The translations under genes were made by a program, and so were the position numbers. A stretch of DNA of 64,000 bases from Desmodesmus armatus (lineage: Eukaryota; Chlorophyta; Chlorophyceae; Sphaeropleales; Scenedesmaceae). The DNA lies in the NCBI GenBank assembly GCA_007449985.2, contig VIIQ02000007.1:124001-188000 (forward strand), in the 5' to 3' direction. This document shows positions 32,301 through 60,760 of the stretch, in pieces. Positions within the stretch are counted from its first letter, which is position 1; each line of letters opens with the position of its first letter. The notes under the pieces were generated by a model. The model saw nothing but the letters and a program-made list of their open reading frames with translations. It ran no database searches and was not told the DNA's origin.

Positions 32301-35300
32301 CCATGCCCTGTGTCAACAGCTGGGCCCCGGCTGTTGAGCAGGCAGCGTGGAGATGCAGTCTGTGCCCCTATCCCCCAAAGCAGTAGGTGAACAGCTGGCA
32401 CCACGTGGGGACAGGGCATTTGTGTGCTTTGCAGCTGCCGCCCTGTAGATGTGCATTTGTCACCAGCACATGTCATCCAGGGTAGTGCATACACAGATCA
32501 TGAACAGCCATTCAAGCACAACACGACACATATCAGTCAGGCAAACTCGTTTGTGCCATTACTGAAAAAGTTGGTATGGTGCAACTGGTTGCGATGGTAA
32601 CCACTAGCTAAGTGCATGGTTTGCGACGTCGAACCGAAACACGTTATGTGACAGGTAAATAATGTTGATAAGTTGCTGTGAAATCCGCAGGGGTTGTGCT
32701 GCAGCTTTCGTTTTGTACCGCGAAGCCAACCCGGAAAGCCAGCTGCAGCAAGTTGCAATGCGGCAGCGATGTATGAGCGATTTTGTACACTAAAAATGGT
32801 TTTTTTGATGTTGAATGCTACTGCGCATGCCGTTGCTGCAAGTTTTCATTGTGTACCGCACAGCCATCCCTGAAAGGATCCTGAAAGCCAGGCTGCACCG
32901 TCAACATGCAACCGGGAGTCATTATGAAGCTGGCTGTAAAATAAAGCCAATTGTGATATTTTCAGGTGCCGGAAACGCTGGGATAGTTCAGGGACAGCAT
33001 GTCACTCTTTTGGAATAAAATGCTAATTCTTTTCCTAGTCCATGACTCGGGAAAATCAAATCTTGCAAAAAGCAGCAGCCAGCCATGTAAGCCATGCATT
33101 GAACTATGCAAGAGCCAAGGATGTGCTGGGCGCACTACGGTTTGTGACAGAGACGCCACCCAACTAGGCAACCTTGAAAGTCACTCTGACACATTGGCGA
33201 CCATCTTGCATGTAGAGACGTAACAGCGTGCCACACACCAAGCGGTCAAATATAAAGAAGGATGCAAGCAAACTCAAGCTGCTGCCGCCTGTCATGTGGC
33301 CTGTCTGAACCCACTCCAAAAATAGGCGCTAGTGGGTTCCAGCAGCACTTCAGTGGGGCACCGTCTCCTGCACTGCATCATATGATGATGCACATGTGCA
33401 CAATCGTGCTCTAGCACTGGTGCCTACCTCCTGATGTCCCCCAGGGTTGCATTCAGCTCCGGACACTCAGCACAGGTTGCGAAAGAGTTCCCCCTGACGC
33501 CATGCCATGCTGCAAGCAACAGACAGGCACATGCCCAGTCAGACGGGATGGTCTGAACATGACTCTGAGCGCTTGATCGCACGCACTAGCAAGGGTGTTG
33601 CTGGGACCTCTCCATTCAGCTCAATCAGATCACTTTCAAGTGGCATACAATACATGTTTCGCGGATTTGCATCGTCTGTCTCTGAGCAATTGGGCGCACA
33701 GCTGTGTCAGAGACAGCCACAGCAAGTGGGTATTTGCAGCTGCTGTCATGCGCAAGTTGTTTTTGGAAGCTGACACCCAGCGTGCACTCACATCCAGACA
33801 GGGGCACCAGCACTGCACCCCCAGGTGCATAGGCTGTGCTTGGTGCGGCCCAACACTGCCGCTCGCTGTGCCCTGGGCTGGCTTCCAGTGTGGAGTACTG
33901 ATAGGGCGGACACTGCTCACAGAATTCCGACGGGGACAGATACTCTCCCTTGCCACACAGACGGCGCCGCCAAATCACGCCAGGACTTGAGTAGTTGAAG
34001 TCGGACACGTTAAGCTTGACGGTGAAGTACGGCCCAACCAGCAACCGCTGATATTTGTTGCCGCCTGTAAAGGATACGTTGTTGACAACTATGCTTGTGG
34101 CAAGGTCATCAACACGCACTGTGTCGTCGTTGTCACCACCAGCCATCACGGTTGAGATGCCACCCCCAGAGCTCCATGCCTTGCAGTCCTTGATGGTGCC
34201 GCCGCTGACATAGCAGTGGGCTCGGCGCTCAAGCATAACAACACCTGTTGACACGCACAGCAGATGTCACACAGAAGCACACAGAAGCACATGCAGTGCA
34301 TGACGGCGGGGGACAGACTGGATGTCACACCGTGGCACGATCAAGGTGAGGCAATTTTGCAAGCATTAAACCCTGCCACAGCAGGTGGCAACACATGCCA
34401 TCCAGTCTGGACCCAGACTTCAGCAATGTTTACTGTCAGAGGGAGTGCTCTGTGGCAGACTTGCCCCCAAGTCCACAGAGAAGAACATGGTTGTTCAACC
34501 TGTGTCGACACACGCACGTCCCCGATGCAACCGTCGCACTGTGACAGATGCAAGCAGTGCAGTGCACTACACCACATGCTACCGTAGCACTATATCACAT
34601 GCTACCGTACTAGCTAGCTACTATAGTAGCTCGTAGCGGAGTGACTCCGCTACAAGCTTTCCAAGCTTATGGTGAGCTGCCTGGAGACCGAGCACTGCAA
34701 GTGCAGCAGTGCTGCAGCCAATTTGCCAGATGCCTCACCTCCTGTGGCCTCAGCCGTGTTACTTTCAAATGTGGTGTTGACCAGCCAAAGTGTGCTGTTG
34801 ATCGACCTGTCCCATTCCATGGTGCCCACAAACACAGCACCGCCATTCCGATGTGCACGGTTGTTGCCTAGGTAGCTGTGGGTCATGTTCACGTGTGCAA
34901 CATGCATGCGCACAGCTCCTGCACACAAACACAGCAGGTGACGATGAGCATACAGTACACATGCAGAGGAAAGTACAACCATGGTGGGGTCATGTTATTG
35001 CCGCCTGGGACTGTAAATTTCACCAGCCCATGTGACGGGTCACCAGGCCCACGGCTGTTGGGCTGAGTGACATGTGAGCACTGGAGATGCCTGACACTGC
35101 ATTGCAATGCAGTTGCCAACTGGGTGTCGGTTTTGACCAGGCACTTGCTTTGTGCTGACTTCGTACTTCCAGCCAGGGTTCACCTCACTCACCTCCATCC
35201 ATCACTGCCCTATTGTTTGAAAAATTGGTGGCAACAAAGTCTGCGTTTGAATGCTCGATGTACACAGCACCACCCACACCAAGTTTGTAGTACTCCTGCA

Positions 35301-38300
35301 TGTTATCTGGCTGCACAATGCGGGCTGTGTTCTCAAGAAAGTCACAGCCCTCAATGCTCAGGCTGGTGTCATTGTACACAGCCAGAGCTCCACCCGTCGG
35401 TGCTGCGTTGTTTGTGAGTCTGGTGCTGCTCATGGTGAGGTTGCTGAACTTCAAATACATAGCACCACCTCCCTCGTCAGCCACGTTGTACTCAAATTTG
35501 CTGTTTTTGATGACAACTTTGGCACCAGCCGCGTACAGGGCCGGCCCATGGGACCGGGCGGTGTTGCGCTGGACTTTGGCATCTGAAACCCGCAAGGTAG
35601 ATCTCCATGAGGCGTACAAGGCACCTGCATCTAGCTTGTTGTCCCCAAGGTATGTGCCATGCACACTCAGGGTGGTGTTGGCGAGGGCTACCACAGCCAT
35701 GTACGCCGCTGTGTGGATGATACTGCCACCAACAACTGTAGCGGTGAGGCCGCCACCGAATGCAAGCAACTGCAGCAGAGTGCGATGAGTACAGCAATCC
35801 AACGGCGTACAGTGAGATAGGGATACATCACAACAGACAGTGAGCTGACTTATCTGTGCATGTGCGCATGCGCGTGCGTGGTGCATTGACATGTTAGGGA
35901 GGTTGACTTGCAGCGGCTGTAGCACACCATGGCTGTGTGATGCGTCACACCAAGGGACTGCTATTGTTGGATGAGGCTGGCGCCGCAACCTGACCGGAGA
36001 ATGGGGGATGTTAGTAGGCCCTCTGGGCACCCTCATGAGCCCTTGCCTCGCTGGCTAGTGCCGAGGTTGGGGCCCTGTGTTGTACTGTACTGCAATGCAT
36101 GCCCCCAACCAGGCTCTGGGAAGCATACACATTTTGCAGGTAGCCAGCACTGCCCAATGCGAGATCCTAGGCGATGCGTGCAACCGCTCTCTAACACTGC
36201 GGCAGTTGCTGCATCACCCACCTGCTTGCACACTGCTGCTGACCGAAAAGTGCTACATGTGACGCTGTAAACGCAGAAACTTGTCAAAACACCAACGTCG
36301 ATTAACAATACTCACTGCAGGAGCGCCACCGCCGGCTTTGAGCTGGCACCCTGTGATCTGGGGGTTGGTGAGGACCACGTGACAGGTAGAGCCTCCAAAG
36401 AAGAAGAGCATGGGCCATATGGTGCCGTTGTACAGCGGTTCAGTGCGGTTGAGGGGGATCTCTATGGCACTGAATTCTGCTGAATCCCAGGGAGCTACTG
36501 GACTTGGCAGCTGACCCGCAGGTATTCCAAACGGGGGCTTGATCAGGCCTGCCATGTTAGTGGTGCCATCCTTGAACATTCCCGTGCTGTTGTAGTACAG
36601 TAGTAGGTTGCAATCTGCTGGTGCGGTGGGCTGCCTGTGGCAGGAGATGTTGACGGCCTGCAGGGCACAAGGTGACAAAAGACTTGCACTACAAGTATTA
36701 ACTAATAATACTAATTATTGCTATTACTGATATTGTCAGTAGTAGTGACTTGTACTTAGTGCTGCACATATAGATCATGGGACAGCGCGTCTATTCAAAG
36801 CTAACCAAGGCACACATGCAGCTTGCATGGAGACACAGTTGCAGCGGCACTAGGGGGGTAAGGGTTTAGGGTTTAGGGTTGCGGCGGCACCTGTGCAACC
36901 TTGTACAGCATGCTGCGGTCCTCACCTGTTGCTTGCTTGTTTGCTGCTCCATGACATTGACAAGCAAGCTGCAGCTGTGTGTTGGTGATGGAAGCGCACT
37001 AGCGGCTGGCAAACAGGCGGACAGCAGCAAAGCAGAAACATTGGGAACAAATAGGCCTGATGTGACGGTCTCTCCATGTACAACATCCATCGACAATAAC
37101 AGTGCTCAAAAGGCGGTGCATGATCTTGTTGGAGCATGCTGCACTGACTTTCACGGGGGGGGGGGGGGGGGGGGCACAGGTGTATGCGTCACGGTGCGGA
37201 GTCGGTATGCGGTGTGTTACACTACAGTAGCGCACATGAGTGGGGTGGGGTCGGGTAGAGGTACCTGCCTGCATGGTGCCAGCGGCAGCTGCCTGCTGCT
37301 GTGCTCAGCAACTGTGGGCGCCGAAGGCAAAGAATCCTAAAAAAAAGGCAAAACGGCTGCATGCTGACACAGGGGCCTTTTATGTGGTGTGCTGTGCCAT
37401 TGGGTCAGGTTGGTGCAGCACCATGGCCCATGGCCCATGGTCTGCAGTCACTTCTGTAACTCCCGGTGGGAGTTACAGAAGTCTTATGAGTTCATGTCCA
37501 GAAACTGGAGCATAGTGTAGTTTGTACAACAGTGGCTACACTGTGGCTGTAGCTAACAACTTGTTGACACGGACGACTTTGGCGAAATGGAGCCTAGGAT
37601 CATTGGTGGCCAGCGCAACGGTGGGTCCCACAGCAGCACTTGCAGGAAATCAAAACTGAGTAACCGATCAGCGGACAGCTGCAACGATCAAATGAGCCAG
37701 GTGTGTGGACAGTCAACGAATGGCAGCAGTGGTACACTTTCTCACTGTGCTGTAGCTAACTTTGAAAGAATGTGACCTAGGTGTGGCACCCAGGATGAAA
37801 AACGGCCCAAGTGAACGCTGCGTCAAATGTGCTGCTGCATGAAATTGTCAAGCTCAACCCCAAGCGTTGCCTTGCAGTCACATGCCAACAAGCACAAGCC
37901 TTGTGTTTGAGGGCCAACCTTCCTTGTGTACAGACCCTTGGCGTGACCAATGCAAGGTATCTTCACGCATGTGTGTAAGTAGATTTGGTTTTTTAATAAA
38001 CCATTTAATCAAAAAAAGTACATTTGTAAGTAACTTAAAATTAATGTAGTTAATTTAATCTAATGTAATGTATTTACATTCAACGTAGTTTTAATTTTAT
38101 ATAATTTAATTCAATTTGTTTATGTGCTACCTGGGCAGCAGACGTGACTCACCAGCACAAACATTGACCTTGCACACGTGGCCAGCAACACTCCCACACG
38201 TGGTGTTGTCGGGCTTGCCAAAGCAGAAAGGAGCTGCACAACAGCACAGGCACACCCGCACACTCAGTATTGGGCCTTCGAAAAACCCGACAACACAAGT

Positions 38301-50800: not shown

Positions 50801-51137
50801 GCCGACTGAGACCTCCTACACAGTGTGTGGTGTGGGTGCCCCCAGGTGTACTGTGTATGACCCTGTGTGGTGTGTGTGAGTCCCAAGTGAAGTAAAATGC
50901 TGAGAAATGGGTTCTTAGGCGATCTTCTGTGAAATCCCTTCAATTTCTCGACCCTGGGTTTTGGCATGGTTTTAGGGGCCAGTACCACCACCACCATCAG
51001 TGCGTGACGGCCTCCTGCATGCGTGACGGCCCCCACACGGTGTGTTGTACAATGTGCTAGGTCTCCGAGGCACAGCCCGGGCGGTTCTCTCGTTGGATTC
51101 GTTTTGGTTTTCATGCCAGCCAGTACACACAGTTGAA
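50801..51137. other. Short divergent upstream region
   Basis: Only 337 bp separate the start codons of the minus-strand unknown gene and the plus-strand kinase-FF gene, so they probably share a bidirectional promoter. GCATGCGTGACGGCC-like sequence appears twice near 51003-51030. No clear TATA element. Confidence 0.4.
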
Positions 51138-54100
51138 ATGCATCCTACAAAGAGATTACTTACGCGTGATTCAAATCTGCGTCACTCACGCCATGTGCCG
51201 GCCTATAGGGGGGCCAGGCAACGACATACTGTTGTTGCGAGGCTCACTGCTCGTGGAAAAAGCATCCCCGCAACAAAAATCACACTCAAGAAGGTTCTAG
51301 GCGAGGGGAGCTATGGGCAGGTGTTTGAGGTGCGTCCAGAGACCCAGTGACTTTGCCTTCTCACTACTGCCCCCCAACGACAGCTGGGTGTGGGCTCACA
51401 GCACCCTGCGTTGCATGGGCGATACTGCAGGGCTTCTTGGACACCCCAGGTGGTGAGGAGCGTGTTGTGCTCAAAAGGGTCAAGGCCAGAGTGCAGGTGC
51501 GCACACAGAGGCCTTGGTTGCTTGGTTGACCCTCTGTTGACTGCCCATGGAGGTTGGCCATAGATCACGCCGGCCTGCATGCATCTGTTGCAGCATGCAA
51601 CATGTTGATAAAATCCACATGGTTGCATTGGTTAGGTACTGAAGCTTGACAACAGCAGCTGGCATGTACAGTACCATTGCACGCCTATGGGCATTGCCTC
51701 CCAGAGGAACACTTAGCGAGATCTTGTGATCGTCAAGCCCTCGGCTCAGCATGCTTGGTATGCACTGCAGTACAAACATCGACAAGTCCACTTTCCTTCT
51801 CTGGCTTATGCTCTATCTTGCTCAGTGCCGTATGGTGTTTGTGCCTTTGTGTCTGCGTGGTACTGTTGCCTGTGCAGGGTGCTGAGGAGATGGCTCAGAT
51901 GGAGCACCTCATGAACGTGTATGCCAGCAAAGCAGCAAAGGGCGGCATTGCTGAGTTCCTTGGATACTGCGAGGTGGCAGCCAGCGAGGCAAACTACAGG
52001 CTTACTGAGGGGCTCTGGCTGGTGAGCAGCCGCAACAGCAGCCGCAGTACCACTAGCAGTCTAGGGTGGTGGGGCAGCAGCAGCAGCAGTTTAGGCTGGT
52101 GGGGCAGCAGCACCGCCAGCAGCGAATGCAGCAGTGGCAGGGGTGGCAGTGACAATACAGCCTGCAATGGACAGTGCTGAGTTGGTTGCCGCGTAGTCAG
52201 CCAATAGGCTAGAATCTCTGTGAGGTCTTGGCTGAGGGCTTCCTGCTGATGAGCAGCAACCGCAGCAGCAGGAGCAGCAGAACAGTTGGCGGCGCCCAGT
52301 GCGTTGAGTAGTTGCTGCACTTTCAGTCAACAATGGGACAAACACATGCTACACATGCAGCTGGCAGGCTTCAGGCCAAGCACATACACACAGATGCAGG
52401 GTGTGCACAACAGCTGAGCACAGATGCAGGGATTGTGCGTTGCGGTGTGCCGCTTATGACCAGCAGGTCCACTGTATGCTGCAGTGAAGCAGCACTGACC
52501 TAGCAGCTGGCCAGTAGCGATCTATCAGCAGCCATTGCCCACGTTTGCACACCAGGCAATGGCAGTTGACTCCTCCAGTGTGCACACCCAAGCAGTGCAG
52601 CCACTGCCTACTCGCAGCTTGGCAGCTGGCAGGCACGTCAATATGCTCTCTGCAGAAGCTCGCAACCGGCCGGGTTATCATCCTGGCAGCAGTGCAAACA
52701 GGGTGCTCAGCAGTAGACGTGAATATGCAGCCAGTTCTTATCCGGCTGGTTACGGCGGTCTGCGTGTGAGCTTAGCTCTTAGCTCTTAGCCGACACTGAT
52801 GTTGCATGTTGCTAATGATGATTCTTGTTCTGTGGCTGCAGATGTGGCGCTACGAGGGGCAGAACACTCTGGCGTACTACCTGCGCCGCCGCGACACCCT
52901 GCGGGCACTGGCACGGGACCTGGATGTGCCCGAGGACATTGTCGTGCCTGTGGCTATGCGGCAGCTGCTGCTGGGGCTTGCAGCGCTGCACTCGGCGGGA
53001 CTGGTGCACAGGTTGGTCTCGGTCTGCAGTTGGTGTGGGTGGGGTGGGCTGGGTGTGCGCGAGCTCAGGGGTGCTGTTGTGGCCTCCTGGAAGGGACAGT
53101 GGGGGATACGGCCCTTGTCTCACAAGCGGCATGGGGACTCGAGCAGTGGGAGGAGGCCTAAGGCCTGCCAGCAGTGGTGTGCAAGGCCAATGCCTGCTGC
53201 ACCAACAGGGCGGGTCTTCTTGGCATTTTGAAGGCGCATCCAACACGCACTGTTGTTGTGGTGTGATGTGCTGAGCAGCCGCTGCCTTTTTGTTACATGC
53301 TCACCTGTAACGTCGGCGTGTCCTGCACCGGCGCCCCGTTGCGGCCTCACCCTTGTGTCAAACAGAGATGTGAAGCCGCTGAACGTGATCGCCAGCGAGC
53401 GGGATGCACGTTTGAAGCTCATTGATCTGGGAGCAGCAGCAGACCTGCGCACAGGAACCAACTACAGCCCAGAGGAATCCATCCTGGACCCCATGTACTG
53501 CCCGCCTGAGCAGGTGATAGGAGGGTGCTGTGCAGTGTGGGGGTATCATGCTCTGGTGCATGTTTGAGCATATGTGTGTTTTCATGTCTTGCATATCCTT
53601 GCATCTGTACGCATGTACCCAGTGGGTCCGGGTGGAGTGTGGTGGTGTTTTTTTTCTTTTGCTGGAGGGCTGTACCTGGCACAAGCAGGGTGCAACAGAA
53701 CCCGGTGATATCAAGCTCACACCTGCAGCGGCATGACCATCACTCTCACATGCTGGCAACACATTCACTCATGTTTGTCGCTGCTGCGCCTGCTGTGTCC
53801 TGGCAGTTTGTGCTGCCCACTGACTCGCCCCACCTGGCCAAGTCAGCGTTTGCCATGGCGCTCAGCCCAATGCTGTGGGCGCAACACAAGCCGGACCGCT
53901 TTGACAGCTGGAGTGCAGGGATCGTGCTGCTGCAGGCAAGTCAGTCGCCTGTCATTGCAAACAATTGCATTGATACTTGTATCACTTGCAGTGAACTTGC
54001 AGGGCTGCAGCTGCAGCAGGATATCTCACAGGAGCTTTCTTCTACCACAGTATCATGTAGCTGCAGCACCAGCAGCGGGAGCACAGCAGCTGCATCCGGC

Positions 54101-57100
54101 TCGCATGTGTTCTCTTGAACCTTTCTGCCTCCATGCAGCTGTGCCTGCCGTTGTGCGCAGCCGCAATCTGACGGCCCTGTTTGGTTTTTTTGTGTCGTGT
54201 TGTCTTGTTCCTTGCGCCTTGCTTCTCTCTGCAGCTGTGTCTGCCGCCGGTGCGCATGCCCCGTGGGCTGAACCTGTTCAAGACAGAGTATGAGCGGGCT
54301 GACTACGACCTGCAGAAATGGAAGAGCAGCTGCAGGTGGATCACCAAGCGGGACACAGCAGTGCTGGACGCTGACGATGGCGCAGGTGTGCGGTTTGTGG
54401 GGTGCGCAGGCACGGTTTGGTGGGATGCGCAGGCGCCGTTTGTGGGTGCAAAACAGTTTTGGGAGGGGTTGTTGGCTGTGCTGAGCAGGGCGGTTTGCAG
54501 CACTTGTGCTCGGCGCCTGGCGGCGAGGCGGGGTTTGCATGCAGCGCTGGGGCATTTTGAAGCTTGTTCTTTTTGACTGCCCAAGGCGTAGATGGCGGTG
54601 AGAATATACATGCTTTTGTGGTTAGTGTTTGCAAGGCATTGCGCTGTAGGAGGGTTGTGGGCTCTGTCGGTTTCGCTAATCAGTCAGCTGCCTGTCCATG
54701 CCTGCTGGTGCTGGCTGGGAGTTCAGCAAAAGTCTGAGAGAGTGAATATGAGGTAGACAACCCAGTAGAATGCCACTTTGGTTCATGGACGCTACCATTG
54801 TCAAAATGCGGTAGGGCAGCTGCACCCCAGCTATCAATGCATGCACATAGTAGTGGATGTGCGTCTTGTGGATGCCAATCGTTCACTGTTCGGGCGTACA
54901 TGTGCACGGTTCAGGAGAGGGCAAGTGCAAGCAGCAGTAATGGGTGAGGGCTTGACTTCCCGCTCAAGCTTGAGGCTGCATGCGCCTGCTGTGGGCAGTT
55001 GTCAGCCTGGTGAGGTCCTTGCGGAGTTGCTGCAAGCGACAGCAGCAGGCTGCAGCTGCACACAGGGGGGCTGCACGGCAGCAAAAGCATGGGCTCTGAG
55101 CTGCAGACTGTGACAGAGGCTGCTTGGTCAATCCTTGCGCTTGATGTGATTTGGAGCTCGGCACACGCTGTTGTATAGGGGGGCTGTGTGTGACTTGCTG
55201 GCAGCCGGTCGTTGTGCACCATGTGGCAGTAGGACCTCACAACTGTGTGTGTATATATATATATACAGTTGTAGCAGGAATATATGTTTAACTGCACATG
55301 CCATTGTGCATGCATGCTATTGGCCGGCTGAAAGCGTGTCACTGAATATGCAATAATGGGGGCTGGTCCTTGGGTTACAAAGCACGTGATCTTCATCCAG
55401 CATTGGTTTGATGCTTGCTGCCCCCACTCTTGTCAAGCATGTGTTCATCACGGCGCTGTCACCACCATACGCCCTCACTGCTTTGTTCACCATAGTGACT
55501 GCCCTCCCTTCTCTGTCCGCAGGTTGGGAGCTGGCGCAGTCGCTGCTGCGCCCTCGCAGCATAGAGGTTGACAGCGACGGCCGCGTCGCCTTCGTCAGCA
55601 CAACCGGCTTCCAGCGTATCGGTGCGCAGGAGGCGCTGCGTCACCGCTTCCTGCGCCCTGCCGCCCTGCACGAACGCAACCTGCGGCGCAGCCTGGCCGG
55701 CTCCTCAGAGGAGAGCAGCAGCTTGGACGACTCTATGGACGAACCCCTCAGCACCAGCGGCAGCGGCAGCAGGAACCGCGCGGGCAGCGGCGGCAGGCGT
55801 GCTTCGTCGGCGCGCGGCAGCAGCGCTAGCTCCAGCGCCAGCGGCACTGAGACGCCGAGCGGCAGTAAGGCAGGCAGTAAAGCAGGGAGCGGTTGGTGGG
55901 GCTTGGGTAGGAAGAAAGCGGAGCCAGTCGAGGAGGAGAAAGAAGAGGACGAGGAGGTGGAAGTGACTGCTGCCAGCAGTGCCCCGTCAGGTAGCGGCTG
56001 GTGGGGGTTGGGCAGGAAGAAAGCCGAGCCAGTGAGGGAGGAGGAAGAAGAGAAAGAGGAGGTTGCAGTGGCTGCTGCCAGCAGTGCCCAGGCCGGGGGT
56101 TTGTTCTCTGCGGCTGCTGGGCTGTGGCGTGGCATGCAGGACAGGCTGTTTGACCTGGAGGCTCGGCTGATCAAGACAGCGAGTGAGACGGCGAAGCAAA
56201 CCACCAAAGTGCAAAACTTGGAGCAGAAGGTAAGCTGTGCTGGATGGCACACTGAGGCAGTTGTGCCTGGAGACGGTCACGCTCTGTCAGCGTGTGTTTG
56301 CTGTTTGTTCTGGGTTGGGTATGGGTGTCGTTGGTACAGGTAGCAGCTGCTGTTTGCGTGCTGCCTTGCAGCCCTTGCTGTCTGCTGCTACCGCTGCAAT
56401 GTGAACTTGGAGCAGCCCTGTGCTGAGCCTGGACACTTGCGTAGTTGGTAGTAGTGCAGCACAAAGCTGACGCCTCTTTTCCACTGTGCCTGCATTTTTT
56501 GGCTGCATCTGCGCAGGTGATGCAGGGCAAGGCTGATGCCAAGCAGCTAGCGCAGGAGAAGCAGCGGTTGGGCCAGATGCAGCAGAAAATGGAGGTCCTA
56601 GAAGACGAAAAGACGAAGACAGCCAGCAGGGCCAACAGCCTCCTGAGCTTCCTAGGCCTGGGCGGCAGCAGCAAGGCATCCACTGCAGCAGAAACACCAG
56701 CGTCTGGCAGCAGTAGTGGTGCCGTAGGCAAGCAGGGCATCATCAGCAAGTCACGGGGGTCCTTGCCGCCGCAGCAGCAGCAAGCAGGCGCACAGCAGCA
56801 GCAGTCTGGCAGCAAGAATGTGTTGCTGCGGTCATGGGAGGCGCTGGGGCAGCAGCTCTTGCAGCTGGAGGGCCGGCTGAGCGAGCAGGAGAGCAAGACG
56901 CAGAAGCAGCGGCTGTCTGTGCAGCGCCTGCAGGAGAAGGTGAGGAAGGCCCTGCATGGCGGGGTGCTGTGGCAAGGGGTGGGCAAGGCGGTCGTGCTAC
57001 CAGCATGCGGATTGCGAGAAGTCTGGGCAGTACTGTGGTGAATTGAGGAAGGCAGGCGAGCAAGCATGTTGCTATGTCAGCACCATTCCAGTGGGCAGCT

Positions 57101-60100
57101 GGTGTACCATGTGTGCGTGTTTTTCACTCATGAGTGTGGCACGAAACCAAACTCACGAGGCAGCTGCAAAGGGTTTCATACAGGTACAGCTTGCATGCAG
57201 CCTGTTTTGATGCATGGTACCGCTGTGTTGCCCTTCCAATGCTGCGTTTGGTGCTGCAGGTGAAAACTGGCGAGGCAAATCCCTCTGAGCTGCAGCGCGA
57301 ACAGGAGAAGCTGGGCCAGATGGACTCTCAGCTGGAGGGCTTGCAGACAAATTACAGCAAAATGAAGGACCAAGCAGCCACGCTGTTGCAGCGCATCAGC
57401 AGCAGCAGTGCTGGCGCAGCCGACAGCGGGGCGAAGGCAGCGAGCGGCATCAGCGGGGCCATGTATGCCGGGCTGAAGTTCAGCGGGCTTGCCATGCGCA
57501 TAGCTGGCGATGTGCTGTCGAGCGTGACGGACGATGCTGGCAAGATGCTGCGGGTGGGTGGTGGTGCATGCTGTTGATGCAGCTGGGTGCAGGCCTTGTC
57601 CACTGAATCTACTGTGCTTGAAACAGTACCGTAGCATAGACACTGGCACACTGCGCAGCCTGCGTGCTGAGCATGGAGCATCTGGTAGCATCGGTGTCGC
57701 TGAGTCTGACAACAGCGCGCGCACATCATGGATTTTGCACCAGCAGCACGAGCACATCATGAATATTGCACAGCAGCGCAAGCACATCATGGAGACTGCA
57801 CACCAGTGCGAGCACATCATGGGTGTCCCCTCTACAATTTGTCATTTATTTGCCATGTGCAGGAGATGGAGGAGGAAGCAGCTGCCAAGCGTGCACGCAA
57901 GGCTGCTGAGTCGGCTTTCCTGCAGCTGCTCAAGGACAACACACCTCCAGATGCTGCCGGCAGCAGCCCACGTAAGGGACAACCTTGCTGCCATGAGCAT
58001 AGCTGCATGACATGCACTTGCTGACAGCAGACCAGTGTGTTGCTTTTGCTTGCATGTGCTGACAGCAAGTTTGTGCTCAATTCACAGTGAGGGTACTGGT
58101 CCCCAGCACTGGTAGCACGGCCGAGGAGATAAGTGTGTTGCCGCTGTGCACATGTGCACATGGCGTTCAGTGTGCACAGCCACACCCTACACACAGCAGC
58201 ATTAACCACAGCCAGCACACTGTGTCATGGACGGCCCAGAAAGAACTCTTCCTCAAATGCACACTTGCGCATGCTGGCCTGTCTATGAGGGCACCTGCTG
58301 TGCATAGTCATTCCTCAAGCGGGTAGCCTGCAGTTGTGCTGAGCGTGCTGAGCTACTTGGGCCGTGCGTAGTGTTTCGAGCAATCTCCGTGCATGCTGCC
58401 GTGTAACTTGGACATGTCCTGCAGGTGCTGCTAGCCCCACAGGCGGCAGTGCACGGGTGTCAGTGCCCAAGGTGGTGGTTGGTGAGGACAGCATCTTTGC
58501 GGAAGTGGAGGTGGCCCTGCAAGATGAACCAGCCTGGCAGGTATGTCTGACATGGCGGTGCGGTCGCCCAGCCATATGCTGTTGGCAGAAGCCACCTGAC
58601 GTCTGTTATGCTGCAGGGGACTTGCAGCCATGTAAAAGCATGTATGCGGTCTGTACCGTCAGTTGCCCCTGTCCAGCTTGCATTGTTGGGTGTGTGTGCT
58701 GGTTTGTTACTGTAAAGCTTGGAACCTTCCTTTGTTGGCTGAATGGGGTGCTGCTGTGGTGCTGTGCGGTGCAGGGTGTGGCATCGCCTGAGCGGCGCGT
58801 GGAGCTGTTTGCGGCGTATGTCGAGGCGCTGCGGCAGGTGGCAGCACAGCGCATGACCAAGGCTGAAGCTGCACTCAGGGAGCTTCTGGTGAAGCTGAAT
58901 GTGGGGCCAGAGAGCAACTGGGAGGAGGTGAGGGACACAGGGGCACAGGGGCAATGTGGCAGGTGCAGCGGGCTGAGGCGCAGGGAAGGTGACGAGGCTA
59001 GTGTGACACGTCTGCGCTGGGGGCATGGGGAGGTCCACAACGGGGCAAGGAACTGTGGCGTCAGCATGCATATGTGTGGTAAGCGTGCAAATGTGCGCAT
59101 TCTGTGTGTATGCCCACCCACTAGTGCTCAGTGCTGGGGATTCAGGTTACTTGGAAGCCAGTGGCCAGCCCAGACACATAGTTTCGTGCAGGCCTTCCCT
59201 GCTGGCACACGCATAAAACCAGCTTGATGTACAGTGAAAGTAGGTTCCAGGCTCAATTGGGTGCCAGCTTGCACACAATCCGAGGTCAACTCACACATCT
59301 TGGCTGCCGGTTGCAGGTTGCCCCGCTGCTAGCAACTGCGCCAGGCTGTGCCATGGTGCCGTTGGACAGGCGTGGAGAGCTCTTCGACGAGCGTGTGCAG
59401 GAGGTGAGCTAACAGTAACACAGCAGCTGACACAGTTTGGCACACTTTATCACAGCATCATGGTTCAGTCAGCCTGGCTTCTGGCGTTGCTCCCTGTCAC
59501 ACGTGGCGACTCTGCTTCACTTTGCAGCGTTTCCACACTTACAAAGGGGTTCAGGCTGGTGTGTGAGCATGGAGTGTATGGCGTGCTGCTGCGGGGCAAG
59601 TCCTGCATTCCCCTGTGTTGCTTATGGATGGTGCTTGGCCTTTGCCTTCATGTGTGTCCTTATGCAGGTGGTGCTGGAGCGTGCCTGCAAAGCAGCTGCT
59701 GAGCGTGCTGAAAATGACTTCAGGCAGCTGCTGCTGGCGCAGCAGGCTGATGGAGCCGTCACTGCACGCAGCACGTGGTCAGCTGTCAAAGCACAGGTGG
59801 GCTGGTACTGCCTGACACGGCCGGTGTACTGCATGCTGCCAGGACATTGCTGCAAGGGCTGGGCTGGTGATTTGTTTTGTTTTTTCTGGCTCAGCGAGCA
59901 GCAGCACACTCTTGCCTGGTAGTGGCACCAGTACTTCTTGTGCATGACAAACAATCGTCGTTGATGTTTGTACGTGTGGTATGTTGTCATTGCAGCTGTG
60001 GAGTGACTCCCGCTACCAGTCGCTTCCGGAAGCTCGCCGCCTGCAGCTCTTCAACGAGTTCTTGTACGAAGTGCGGCAGCAGCAGGCGGCAGTCGACGCA

Positions 60101-60760
60101 GCCGCCGCGGCAGAGGCAGCAGCGGCGGCTGCCGAAGCTGCAGCCGCCGTGGCGGCGGCCGAGGCGGCGGCAGCGGCTGCAGAAGCCGCCAGCCGGCCGC
60201 AGTCCCCCAGCCCTGATGCTGCCGCTGGCAGCAATGGCAGCAGCGCTGCCGGCAGCTTCAGCTCCTTATCGACAGAGGACCTGGATCTAGGCATGGACCA
60301 AGCCAGCATGAGTCCGGAGGACCTTGCCCAGTTGCAGCTGCTGCGGTGGGAGCAGCAGCGGCTGCGGCAGGAGTATCAGAAGATGGAGGACCAGCTGCGC
60401 AAGATGGAGCAGAAGATCCGGTCGGGGGCGTCTTCACCTGTGGCGGGTATCCCAGAGGGCATGTTGCCTGACTTGGATGCCACTGCTGTGGCTGCTGCGG
60501 CTGTGGAGGGGAATGGTGCAGGTGTGCATGCAGCTGAGGGGTCCAATGGGGTTCTGTCTCCTGTTGCCCAGCAGGAGGCAGTGGGGGTGGAGCCTGTTGT
60601 TGAGTCCTTGGCGAATGGTGAGCCGATGAATGTGGTGGTGGAGGGAGGCGCTGGGGACGTGAGTGTGGAGGTCAACAGGGACGGCGTCGTGGTGTTCAAG
60701 TTTTCGGAGAGCGGCAGCCGCAGCAGCACTCCTACAGCTGGTCGTGAGTCTGAGTCCTGA
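51138..60760 (+). CDS. STN8/STN7-like protein kinase fused to coiled coils and three FF domains
   Basis: Exons: 51138-51329, 51431-51496, 51878-52021, 52842-53011, 53366-53513, 53807-53935, 54235-54385, 55523-56229, 56517-56939, 57260-57553, 57863-57971, 58425-58540, 58775-58927, 59317-59403, 59668-59796, 59996-60760 (TGA); 1260 aa. A basic N-terminus may be a transit peptide. Kinase, about 50-375: GEGSYG loop, Lys79 in VVLKRVK, HRDVKPLN at 190-197, DLG (not DFG) at 211-213, PPEQ. The matches [26 protein letters not shown] and ADYDLQKW point to chloroplast state-transition kinases, nearest STN8/Stl1. Exon 8 carries the kinase end ([11 protein letters not shown]) and then, in the same frame, Ser-rich linker, two [14 protein letters not shown] copies and coiled coil. 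FF domains lie near 809-904, 905-963 and 964-1040 ([34 protein letters not shown]). An Ala-rich and acidic tail ends it. FF domains usually bind phospho-peptides, mainly in nuclear splicing and transcription factors. One intron uses a GC donor. Confidence 0.83.
53936..54234 (+). other. GC-AG intron with duplicated acceptor
   Basis: The donor is CAG|GCAAGTC, the GC-AG consensus; family alignment (IVLLQ followed by LCLPPVR) fixes the junction. About 97 nt before the true acceptor a near copy GCAGCTGTGCCTGCCG (54136) mimics GCAGCTGTGTCTGCCG (54231) but runs into an in-frame TGA, so it would be a dead-end exon. Confidence 0.6.
55248..55266. repeat. TG/TA microsatellite
   Basis: GTGTGTGTATATATATATAT in the 1.1-kb intron before the exon that starts at 55523. 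Confidence 0.8.
57719..57830. repeat. 30-bp tandem repeat in kinase-FF intron
   Basis: GCACATCATGGA recurs at 57721, 57752, 57782 and 57812 with spacers like TTTTGCACCAGCAG, a period of 30-31 bp, about four copies, just upstream of exon 57863. Confidence 0.85.
57863..60080 (+). other. FF-domain exons of the kinase fusion
   Basis: Six exons encode three FF-type helical domains in tandem. FF1 ([15 protein letters not shown] ... [13 protein letters not shown]) carries a longer inter-helix insert. FF2 ([14 protein letters not shown] ... NWEE ... [12 protein letters not shown]) and FF3 ([14 protein letters not shown] ... [20 protein letters not shown]) fit the family well: A-x-x-x-F-x-x-L-L, central Trp, then R-x-x-L-F. 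Every FF is split by one intron after the Trp helix (after ..AWQ, ..NWEE, ..VKAQ), suggesting duplication of a two-exon unit. Confidence 0.75.

What the first reader, a model, noticed from the sequence alone, without database searches (positions are those of the whole stretch)
51138..60760. Chloroplast-type state-transition kinase fused to coiled coils and three FF domains
Spliced by hand, 16 exons give one 1260-aa frame. The kinase half carries hallmarks of STN7/STN8 ([26 protein letters not shown]), known for thylakoid protein phosphorylation. The other half carries three FF domains, known mostly from nuclear splicing and transcription factors as phospho-peptide binders. The fusion does not depend on one doubtful splice: exon 55523-56229 holds the kinase end and the linker in one uninterrupted frame. 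A kinase joined to phospho-peptide-binding modules could bind its own products. I do not know of such an architecture.
Basis: partly seen in the sequence, partly recalled or inferred. Interest (0 to 1): 0.88.

Follow-up and report, generated by a model that had tools for sequence, protein, structure and literature searches.

The report
Soluble green-algal kinase carrying FF domains
A green alga's gene really does join a chloroplast-type (STN-like) protein kinase to three FF protein-binding domains, and the same joined gene is found across many green algae as a third, membrane-free branch of the state-transition kinase family for which no study was found.

Summary
The fusion is real. I rebuilt the same 16 exons (51138-60760, +; 1260 aa): STN-type kinase, coiled coils, three FF domains, C-terminal coil. 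Pfam confirms kinase (4.7e-19) and FF (9.4e-16); a family profile made without the window finds three FFs; a relative's FF1-FF2 model matches TCERG1/Prp40 FF structures. It is not unique: many named core chlorophytes (Chlamydomonas, Volvox, Coccomyxa, Trebouxia, Ulva, Bryopsis) carry it, once in a single assembled transcript. It is not STN7/Stt7 or STN8/Stl1: no transmembrane helix or lumenal cysteine pair, own kinase clade (100/99 in the pruned tree; union with STN8 rejected, p 0.0007), and its genome has separate Stt7-like and Stl1-like loci. None of 17 prasinophyte-type relatives examined has an FF, so FFs arose in, or were kept by, core chlorophytes. The N-terminus looks like an organelle transit peptide, more likely plastid than mitochondrial. 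Most likely mechanism: a soluble stromal kinase whose FF array and coils dock it to partners. 'Binds its own phospho-products' is untested; FF domains are not exclusively phospho-binders. A 2012 review noted extra algal STN duplicates; my open-access searches found no paper linking FF to STN kinases.

The parts
51138..60760 (+). whole coding span, 16 exons: 51138-51329, 51431-51496, 51878-52021, 52842-53011, 53366-53513, 53807-53935, 54235-54385, 55523-56229, 56517-56939, 57260-57553, 57863-57971, 58425-58540, 58775-58927, 59317-59403, 59668-59796, 59996-60760; 1260 aa
   Evidence: splicing; alignment with relatives
51138..51242 (+). N-terminal presequence aa 1-35, 1 acidic and 9 basic residues, VVA just before the mature part; no transmembrane helix
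51273..55674 (+). STN-type kinase domain aa 46-384 (P-loop 54-62, VVLKRV 76-81, HRD 190-192, DLG 211-213), over 8 exons
55675..56112 (+). low-complexity linker aa 385-530 with a twice-present [15 protein letters not shown] unit, inside exon 55523-56229
56113..56645 (+). first coiled-coil stretch aa 531-612, alignable with FF-less prasinophyte relatives
56877..57364 (+). second coiled-coil stretch aa 690-745 (similar motif again)
57452..57553 (+). conserved helix aa 775-808 ([19 protein letters not shown]...), weakly amphipathic
57863..58840 (+). FF domain 1, aa 809-905 (with an insert)
58841..59688 (+). FF domain 2, aa 906-970
59689..60091 (+). FF domain 3, aa 971-1038, the most canonical (Pfam best stretch 976-1028)
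60311..60427 (+). C-terminal coiled coil aa 1112-1150 ([26 protein letters not shown]), 31-54% identical in 13 of the 14 core-chlorophyte rows (the 14th, P0021, 11% over 18 columns)

Best explanation
The gene encodes a soluble, plastid-imported serine/threonine kinase of a third, chlorophyte branch of the STN kinase family. It lacks the thylakoid anchor and lumenal redox switch of STN7. Coiled coils probably hold it as an oligomer, and an array of one to three FF domains (three here) acts as an adaptor that docks it to partner or substrate proteins in the stroma. SHOWN by sequence: intact kinase motifs, FF sequence signature (and FF fold in a relative's model), conserved fusion, no membrane anchor before the kinase, separate clade, FF absent from the prasinophyte-type relatives examined. 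INFERRED: import into the plastid, oligomerisation, FF-mediated docking, which substrates.
Confidence: 0.62

Rival explanations
1. The same kinase-FF protein is imported into mitochondria, not plastids, and phosphorylates mitochondrial proteins.
For: PMC3525998 section 5 (read): algal STN duplicates predicted mitochondria-targeted. The Arg-rich, acid-poor N-terminus fits either organelle.
Against: V-x-A-like motif in two adjacent registers in 14 of 36 hand-chosen rows (V-x-A as an algal stromal cleavage motif is recalled). Related bryophyte/fern kinases (P0095, P0109) keep a hydrophobic segment before the kinase, 1.36-1.40, like the thylakoid STN kinases. Presence in a chlorarachniophyte. Algal transit peptides are often scored as mitochondrial by plant predictors (recalled).
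Confidence: 0.2
2. A nuclear or cytosolic kinase that uses its FF array as Prp40 or TCERG1 do, on RNA polymerase II or splicing factors.
For: FF domains of known function are adaptors in RNA metabolism and transcription (PMC2613882); closest solved FF structures are TCERG1, Prp40 and spliceosome chains.
Against: No WW domain by Pfam, transit-like N-terminus, STN kinases of known location are thylakoid proteins (PMC3801152 passages).
Confidence: 0.12
3. Annotation artefact: two neighbouring genes, a kinase and an FF protein, joined by hand splicing.
For: P0121 (Scenedesmus sp. NREL 46B-D3) ends within the intron after the exon-8 counterpart; P0123 and P0239 are models named gene3693 and gene3694 that hold the two halves; P0128, apparently from a transcript record, stops at 263 aa.
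Against: Fusion seen in many named algae and in one assembled transcript (P0021), with the coiled coil between both halves conserved. Searching the FF half alone gave 9 hits, and all 9 read as pieces of this family.
Confidence: 0.04
4. The FF array reads phosphorylated products of the attached kinase, giving processive or feedback phosphorylation.
For: Some FF domains bind phospho-CTD (PMC2613882 Table 1); kinase and FF are one polypeptide.
Against: The same paper shows FF domains binding unphosphorylated peptides and refutes exclusive phospho-binding. FF1 and FF2 of the window are net acidic and FF3 about neutral, which does not point to phosphate binding. Pfam resolves one stretch only in P0020 and P0049, and 5 of 82 rows have one FF by the family profile.
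Confidence: 0.1

Closest known systems
Chlorophyte kinase-FF homologues: CHLRE_16g688526v5 (Chlamydomonas reinhardtii, P0006), Rsub_00670 (Raphidocelis, P0001), 'STN8 ... at N-terminal half' (Coccomyxa sp., P0020)
   Same: same order: presequence, STN-type kinase, coiled coil, FF array, C-terminal coil; kinase 62%, 70% and 58% identical to the window
   Different: linker length and low-complexity content; Pfam FF stretches 3, 3 and 1
STN7/Stt7
   Same: STN-type kinase domain with the same motifs
   Different: STN7 has a transmembrane helix and lumenal Cys pair (PMC3525998) and no FF in the one STN7-type row tested (P0232); other clade (p 0.003 against joining)
STN8/Stl1
   Same: STN-type kinase domain
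   Different: STN8 has a transmembrane segment and no FF in the two rows tested; other clade (p 0.0007); the Stl1-like gene of this genome ends right after the kinase
Soluble STN-like kinases of prasinophytes (P0091, P0096, P0137 Ostreococcus; P0228 Cymbomonas)
   Same: kinase 44-48% identical and first coiled coil alignable in P0091, P0096, P0137; kinase starts near the N-terminus without a transmembrane helix in these three
   Different: no FF by the family profile or, for P0096 and P0228, by Pfam; P0228 is partial and lacks its N-terminus
MsStt7d (PDB 4ix3, Micromonas)
   Same: best structural and sequence match of the kinase in the PDB
   Different: its near relative P0231 has a PDZ-like N-terminus, below Pfam's cut-off, and no FF; placed on a long branch
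TCERG1/CA150, Prp40, FBP11 (WW/FF family)
   Same: FF domains by sequence (3hfh 7.5e-9) and predicted fold
   Different: WW domains, no kinase; nuclear (PMC2613882)

Membership tests
STN7/Stt7 state-transition kinase | one transmembrane helix before the kinase domain | tested here: not met
   hydropathy of 19-mers before the P-loop at most 1.12 in those of P0001-P0082 that could be scored; land-plant STN8 rows with a full N-terminus about 1.43-1.84, STN7-type P0232 1.84; the window has only 53 aa before its P-loop, 9 of the first 35 basic. The window itself was not run through the hydropathy script.
STN7/Stt7 state-transition kinase | lumenal cysteine pair before the helix | tested here: not met
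   first Cys of the window protein is at aa 117, inside the kinase
STN7/Stt7 state-transition kinase | groups with STN7 kinases in a tree | tested here: not met
   only one STN7-type row (P0232, so assigned from its Cys pair and helix); joining rejected, p 0.003, a test chosen after the tree was seen
STN8/Stl1 | groups with STN8/Stl1 kinases in a tree | tested here: not met
   p 0.0007 against joining; own Stl1-like gene at C7 groups with STN8, 99/82
STN kinase superfamily | STN-type catalytic domain | tested here: met
   35-42% identity to land-plant STN-type kinases; MsStt7d 6.5e-61
FF domain | Pfam PF01846 over its cut-off | tested here: met
   58.1 bits, cut-off 22
FF domain | FF fold | tested here: met
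   on the relative P0239 (FF1-FF2), not on the window protein itself: 11 of the first 15 Foldseek rows are named FF entries, the other 4 spliceosome chains; only the first row has E under 0.001
WW/FF family (Prp40, TCERG1) | WW domains before the FF array | tested here: not met
   no WW hit at E up to 1
chlorophyte kinase-FF family | kinase, coil, FF array and C-terminal coil in this order, in one clade | tested here: met
third STN group of PMC3525998 (predicted mitochondrial duplicates) | identity with the C. reinhardtii and O. lucimarinus sequences of that figure | not testable with these tools
   the text read gives no identifiers and figures are not held

The most novel reading that the evidence does not exclude
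An FF-domain adaptor array, so far known from nucleus and cytosol, works inside the chloroplast: in core chlorophytes an STN kinase lost its thylakoid anchor, gained FF domains, and now phosphorylates stromal complexes (for example plastid gene-expression or assembly machinery) that the FF array selects. This would be a third photosynthetic STN signalling branch, missing from higher plants.
Probability: 0.35. Interest if true: 0.78.

Novelty: new variant of a known kind. Interest (0 to 1): 0.56.

Why it matters
Thylakoid phosphorylation is discussed as a two-kinase system (STN7/Stt7 and STN8/Stl1). Many core green algae, including the model Chlamydomonas, keep a third, soluble STN-type kinase with a domain otherwise known from nuclear splicing and transcription factors. 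It is directly testable by tagging and knocking out one Chlamydomonas gene. It also shows how a membrane kinase may become a scaffolded soluble one, and raises the question whether the crystal structure filed as an 'Stt7 homolog' belongs to the STN7 branch at all.

Tried and rejected
Considered and rejected: (a) two genes joined by hand splicing, see rival 3; (b) membership in STN7 or STN8, tested by features, tree and AU test; (c) a membrane anchor elsewhere: the helix at aa 775-808 is only weakly amphipathic (moments 0.37-0.52; several other segments score higher), so I do not claim membrane binding; (d) TGTAA as a poly(A) signal between the two halves: none on the + strand between 53310 and 58402, but none after the gene end either, so uninformative. 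The whole-protein Foldseek search showed only kinases in its 50 rows, because the kinase dominates; the FF part was therefore modelled through a relative. Tree: the place of MsStt7d and P0230, P0231, P0233 is unsure (long branches); these four and seven others (P0024, P0028, P0087, P0093, P0116, P0131, P0135) were dropped before the tree (62 of 73 rows kept). Before dropping, the FF group had 97/79 support and took in the MsStt7d rows. A fourth AU test, FF with P0095/P0109 but without the prasinophyte rows, was also rejected (p 0.011). The root was not inferred, so gain of FF in core chlorophytes versus loss in prasinophytes is inference. The V-x-A test used 36 hand-chosen rows after one search had shown all 56. 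Absence of the gene from colourless algae could not be tested. Literature was searched only in open-access PMC main text; supplements were not searched. No paper joining FF domains with an STN kinase was found. Papers: PMC3525998 section 5 read, plus passages; PMC2613882, PMC3801152 and PMC12852261 passages only; the MsStt7d paper is not held. Alga class names and the link of jgi codes Botrbrau1 and Ulvmu1 to Botryococcus and Ulva are recalled.

Full report
Gene model. The ATG at 51138 lies in a frame that is stopped just upstream (stop-to-stop frame 51027-51350), and relatives with a complete N-terminus start their kinase domains at a similar distance. The window lies in a 115.8-Mb assembly of 831 contigs. 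The kinase of Scenedesmus sp. NREL 46B-D3 (P0121) is 84% identical over the tree columns, so the organism is probably a scenedesmacean green alga (inference).

Not unique. One search lists 120 of 168 homologues; 70 of these 120 carry precomputed PF01846. Names include Raphidocelis, Monoraphidium, Volvox, Chlamydomonas (several, with CHLRE_16g688526v5), Gonium, Edaphochlamys, Trebouxia, Myrmecia, Coccomyxa, Elliptochloris, Apatococcus, Parachlorella, Picochlorum, Micractinium, Botryococcus, Ostreobium, Bryopsis and Ulva. With the family profile, 80 of the first 82 rows have at least one FF (39 three, 33 two, 5 one, 2 four, 1 five; that profile was built partly from the same rows). FF is not universal: of 28 rows without precomputed FF that I scanned with the profile, 16 show one or more and 12 none, among them Haematococcus P0015 and paralogues P0122, P0124, P0125. 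Pfam resolves one to three FF stretches in eight of nine representatives; in the ninth (P0062) the family score is over the cut-off but no single stretch passes. An alignment with 28 relatives covers kinase, first coil, FF array and C-terminal coil in core chlorophytes (17 rows shown by domain). P0021 is a single assembled transcript with both halves. Against this, P0121 ends within the intron after the exon-8 counterpart, P0123/P0239 are two neighbouring models by name, and P0128 stops early.

Not STN7 or STN8. Before the P-loop the scored FF-kinases have no hydrophobic helix (19-mer hydropathy at most 1.12), while land-plant STN8 rows with a full N-terminus do. STN7 and STN8 are integral thylakoid proteins (PMC3801152, passages), and STN7 has a lumenal Cys pair (PMC3525998); the window's first Cys is at aa 117. 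In the pruned tree (62 of 73 rows) FF-kinases form a 100/99 clade of 34 rows, prasinophyte-type soluble kinases a 98/91 clade of 17, and STN7, STN8 and two bryophyte/fern proteins a 100/98 clade of 11. In the full tree the FF side has 45 rows and 97/79 support, and takes in MsStt7d and other long branches. The 34 rows include FF-less paralogues and models from core chlorophytes. Forcing FF-kinases with STN8 or with the one STN7-type row is rejected (p 0.0007 and 0.003; groups chosen after seeing the tree). The same assembly holds an STN8-like gene at C7 that ends right after the kinase and an STN7-like, frame-broken locus at the end of C327.

Evolution. None of 17 prasinophyte-type rows and none of 6 other rows (five streptophyte STN-type, one MsStt7d-type) shows an FF by the family profile. 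The three prasinophyte rows aligned with the window share the kinase and the first coiled coil. Some Sphaeropleales have a second, FF-less paralogue (P0122, P0124, P0125); in this assembly the seven strongest matches to P0121 (E 8e-20 or better) all lie in the window gene. The simplest story is a soluble kinase with coils in early chlorophytes, and FF domains inserted between the coils in core chlorophytes, lost again in some paralogues. The direction is inferred because the tree is unrooted.

Location and mechanism. Over 56 rows the region before the kinase has 2.5% acidic and 18.9% basic residues. A V-x-A-like motif sits in two adjacent registers in 14 of 36 hand-chosen rows, with at most 8 in 1000 shuffles (shuffling ignores kinship of the rows); without register it is barely above chance (28 of 56 against 18.6, best shuffle 28). 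A homologue without FF occurs in Gymnochlora, a chlorarachniophyte. PMC3525998 states that algal and Selaginella STN duplicates were predicted mitochondrial, probably this clade, so plastid is favoured but not proven. Kinase motifs are intact. FF domains bind phospho-CTD in some proteins but also plain peptides (PMC2613882, passages), so FF-mediated docking is likely and phospho-reading is open.

Novelty. I found no paper on CHLRE_16g688526 or on FF domains with STN kinases, in open-access PMC main text only. The kinase group was noticed in 2012; the section and passages I read do not mention FF. I call it a new variant of a known kind.

Noticed in passing
L027 (own assembly C327:1-5000): Stt7/STN7-like locus at a contig end, with G-runs, repeated exon-like copies and broken frames; an assembly fault or a decayed copy.
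   Followed up: partly
L026 1919-4768 (own assembly C7): STN8/Stl1-like gene, seven exons read, no FF; its first exon was not defined.
   Followed up: partly
P0095 (Calypogeia fissa), P0109 (Adiantum): Bryophyte and fern STN-type kinases outside the STN7 and STN8 rows of the tree, with a hydrophobic segment before the kinase and a second one in a long C-terminus; perhaps the Selaginella-type duplicates of PMC3525998.
   Followed up: partly
PDB 4ix3 (MsStt7d), relative P0231: The solved 'Stt7 homolog' is of a type with a PDZ-like N-terminus (below Pfam's cut-off) and does not fall with the STN7-type row (long branch, unsure), yet it was compared with an STN7 model in PMC12852261.
   Followed up: partly
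P0122, P0124, P0125: Sphaeropleales (Monoraphidium, Raphidocelis) have an FF-less paralogue of this kinase.
   Followed up: no
P0077: A kinase-FF protein is filed under a bacterial MAG; probably algal DNA binned as a bacterium.
   Followed up: no
window 35188-36054 (-): Open frame with Pfam hits over cut-off for right-handed beta helix (1.3e-7) and Chlam_PMP repeat (2.3e-5); the only one of ten long open frames scanned with a hit over its cut-off.
   Followed up: no
window 55885-55929 and 55990-56034: The linker carries the 15-aa unit [15 protein letters not shown] twice; the two DNA copies agree at 39 of 45 bases.
   Followed up: partly
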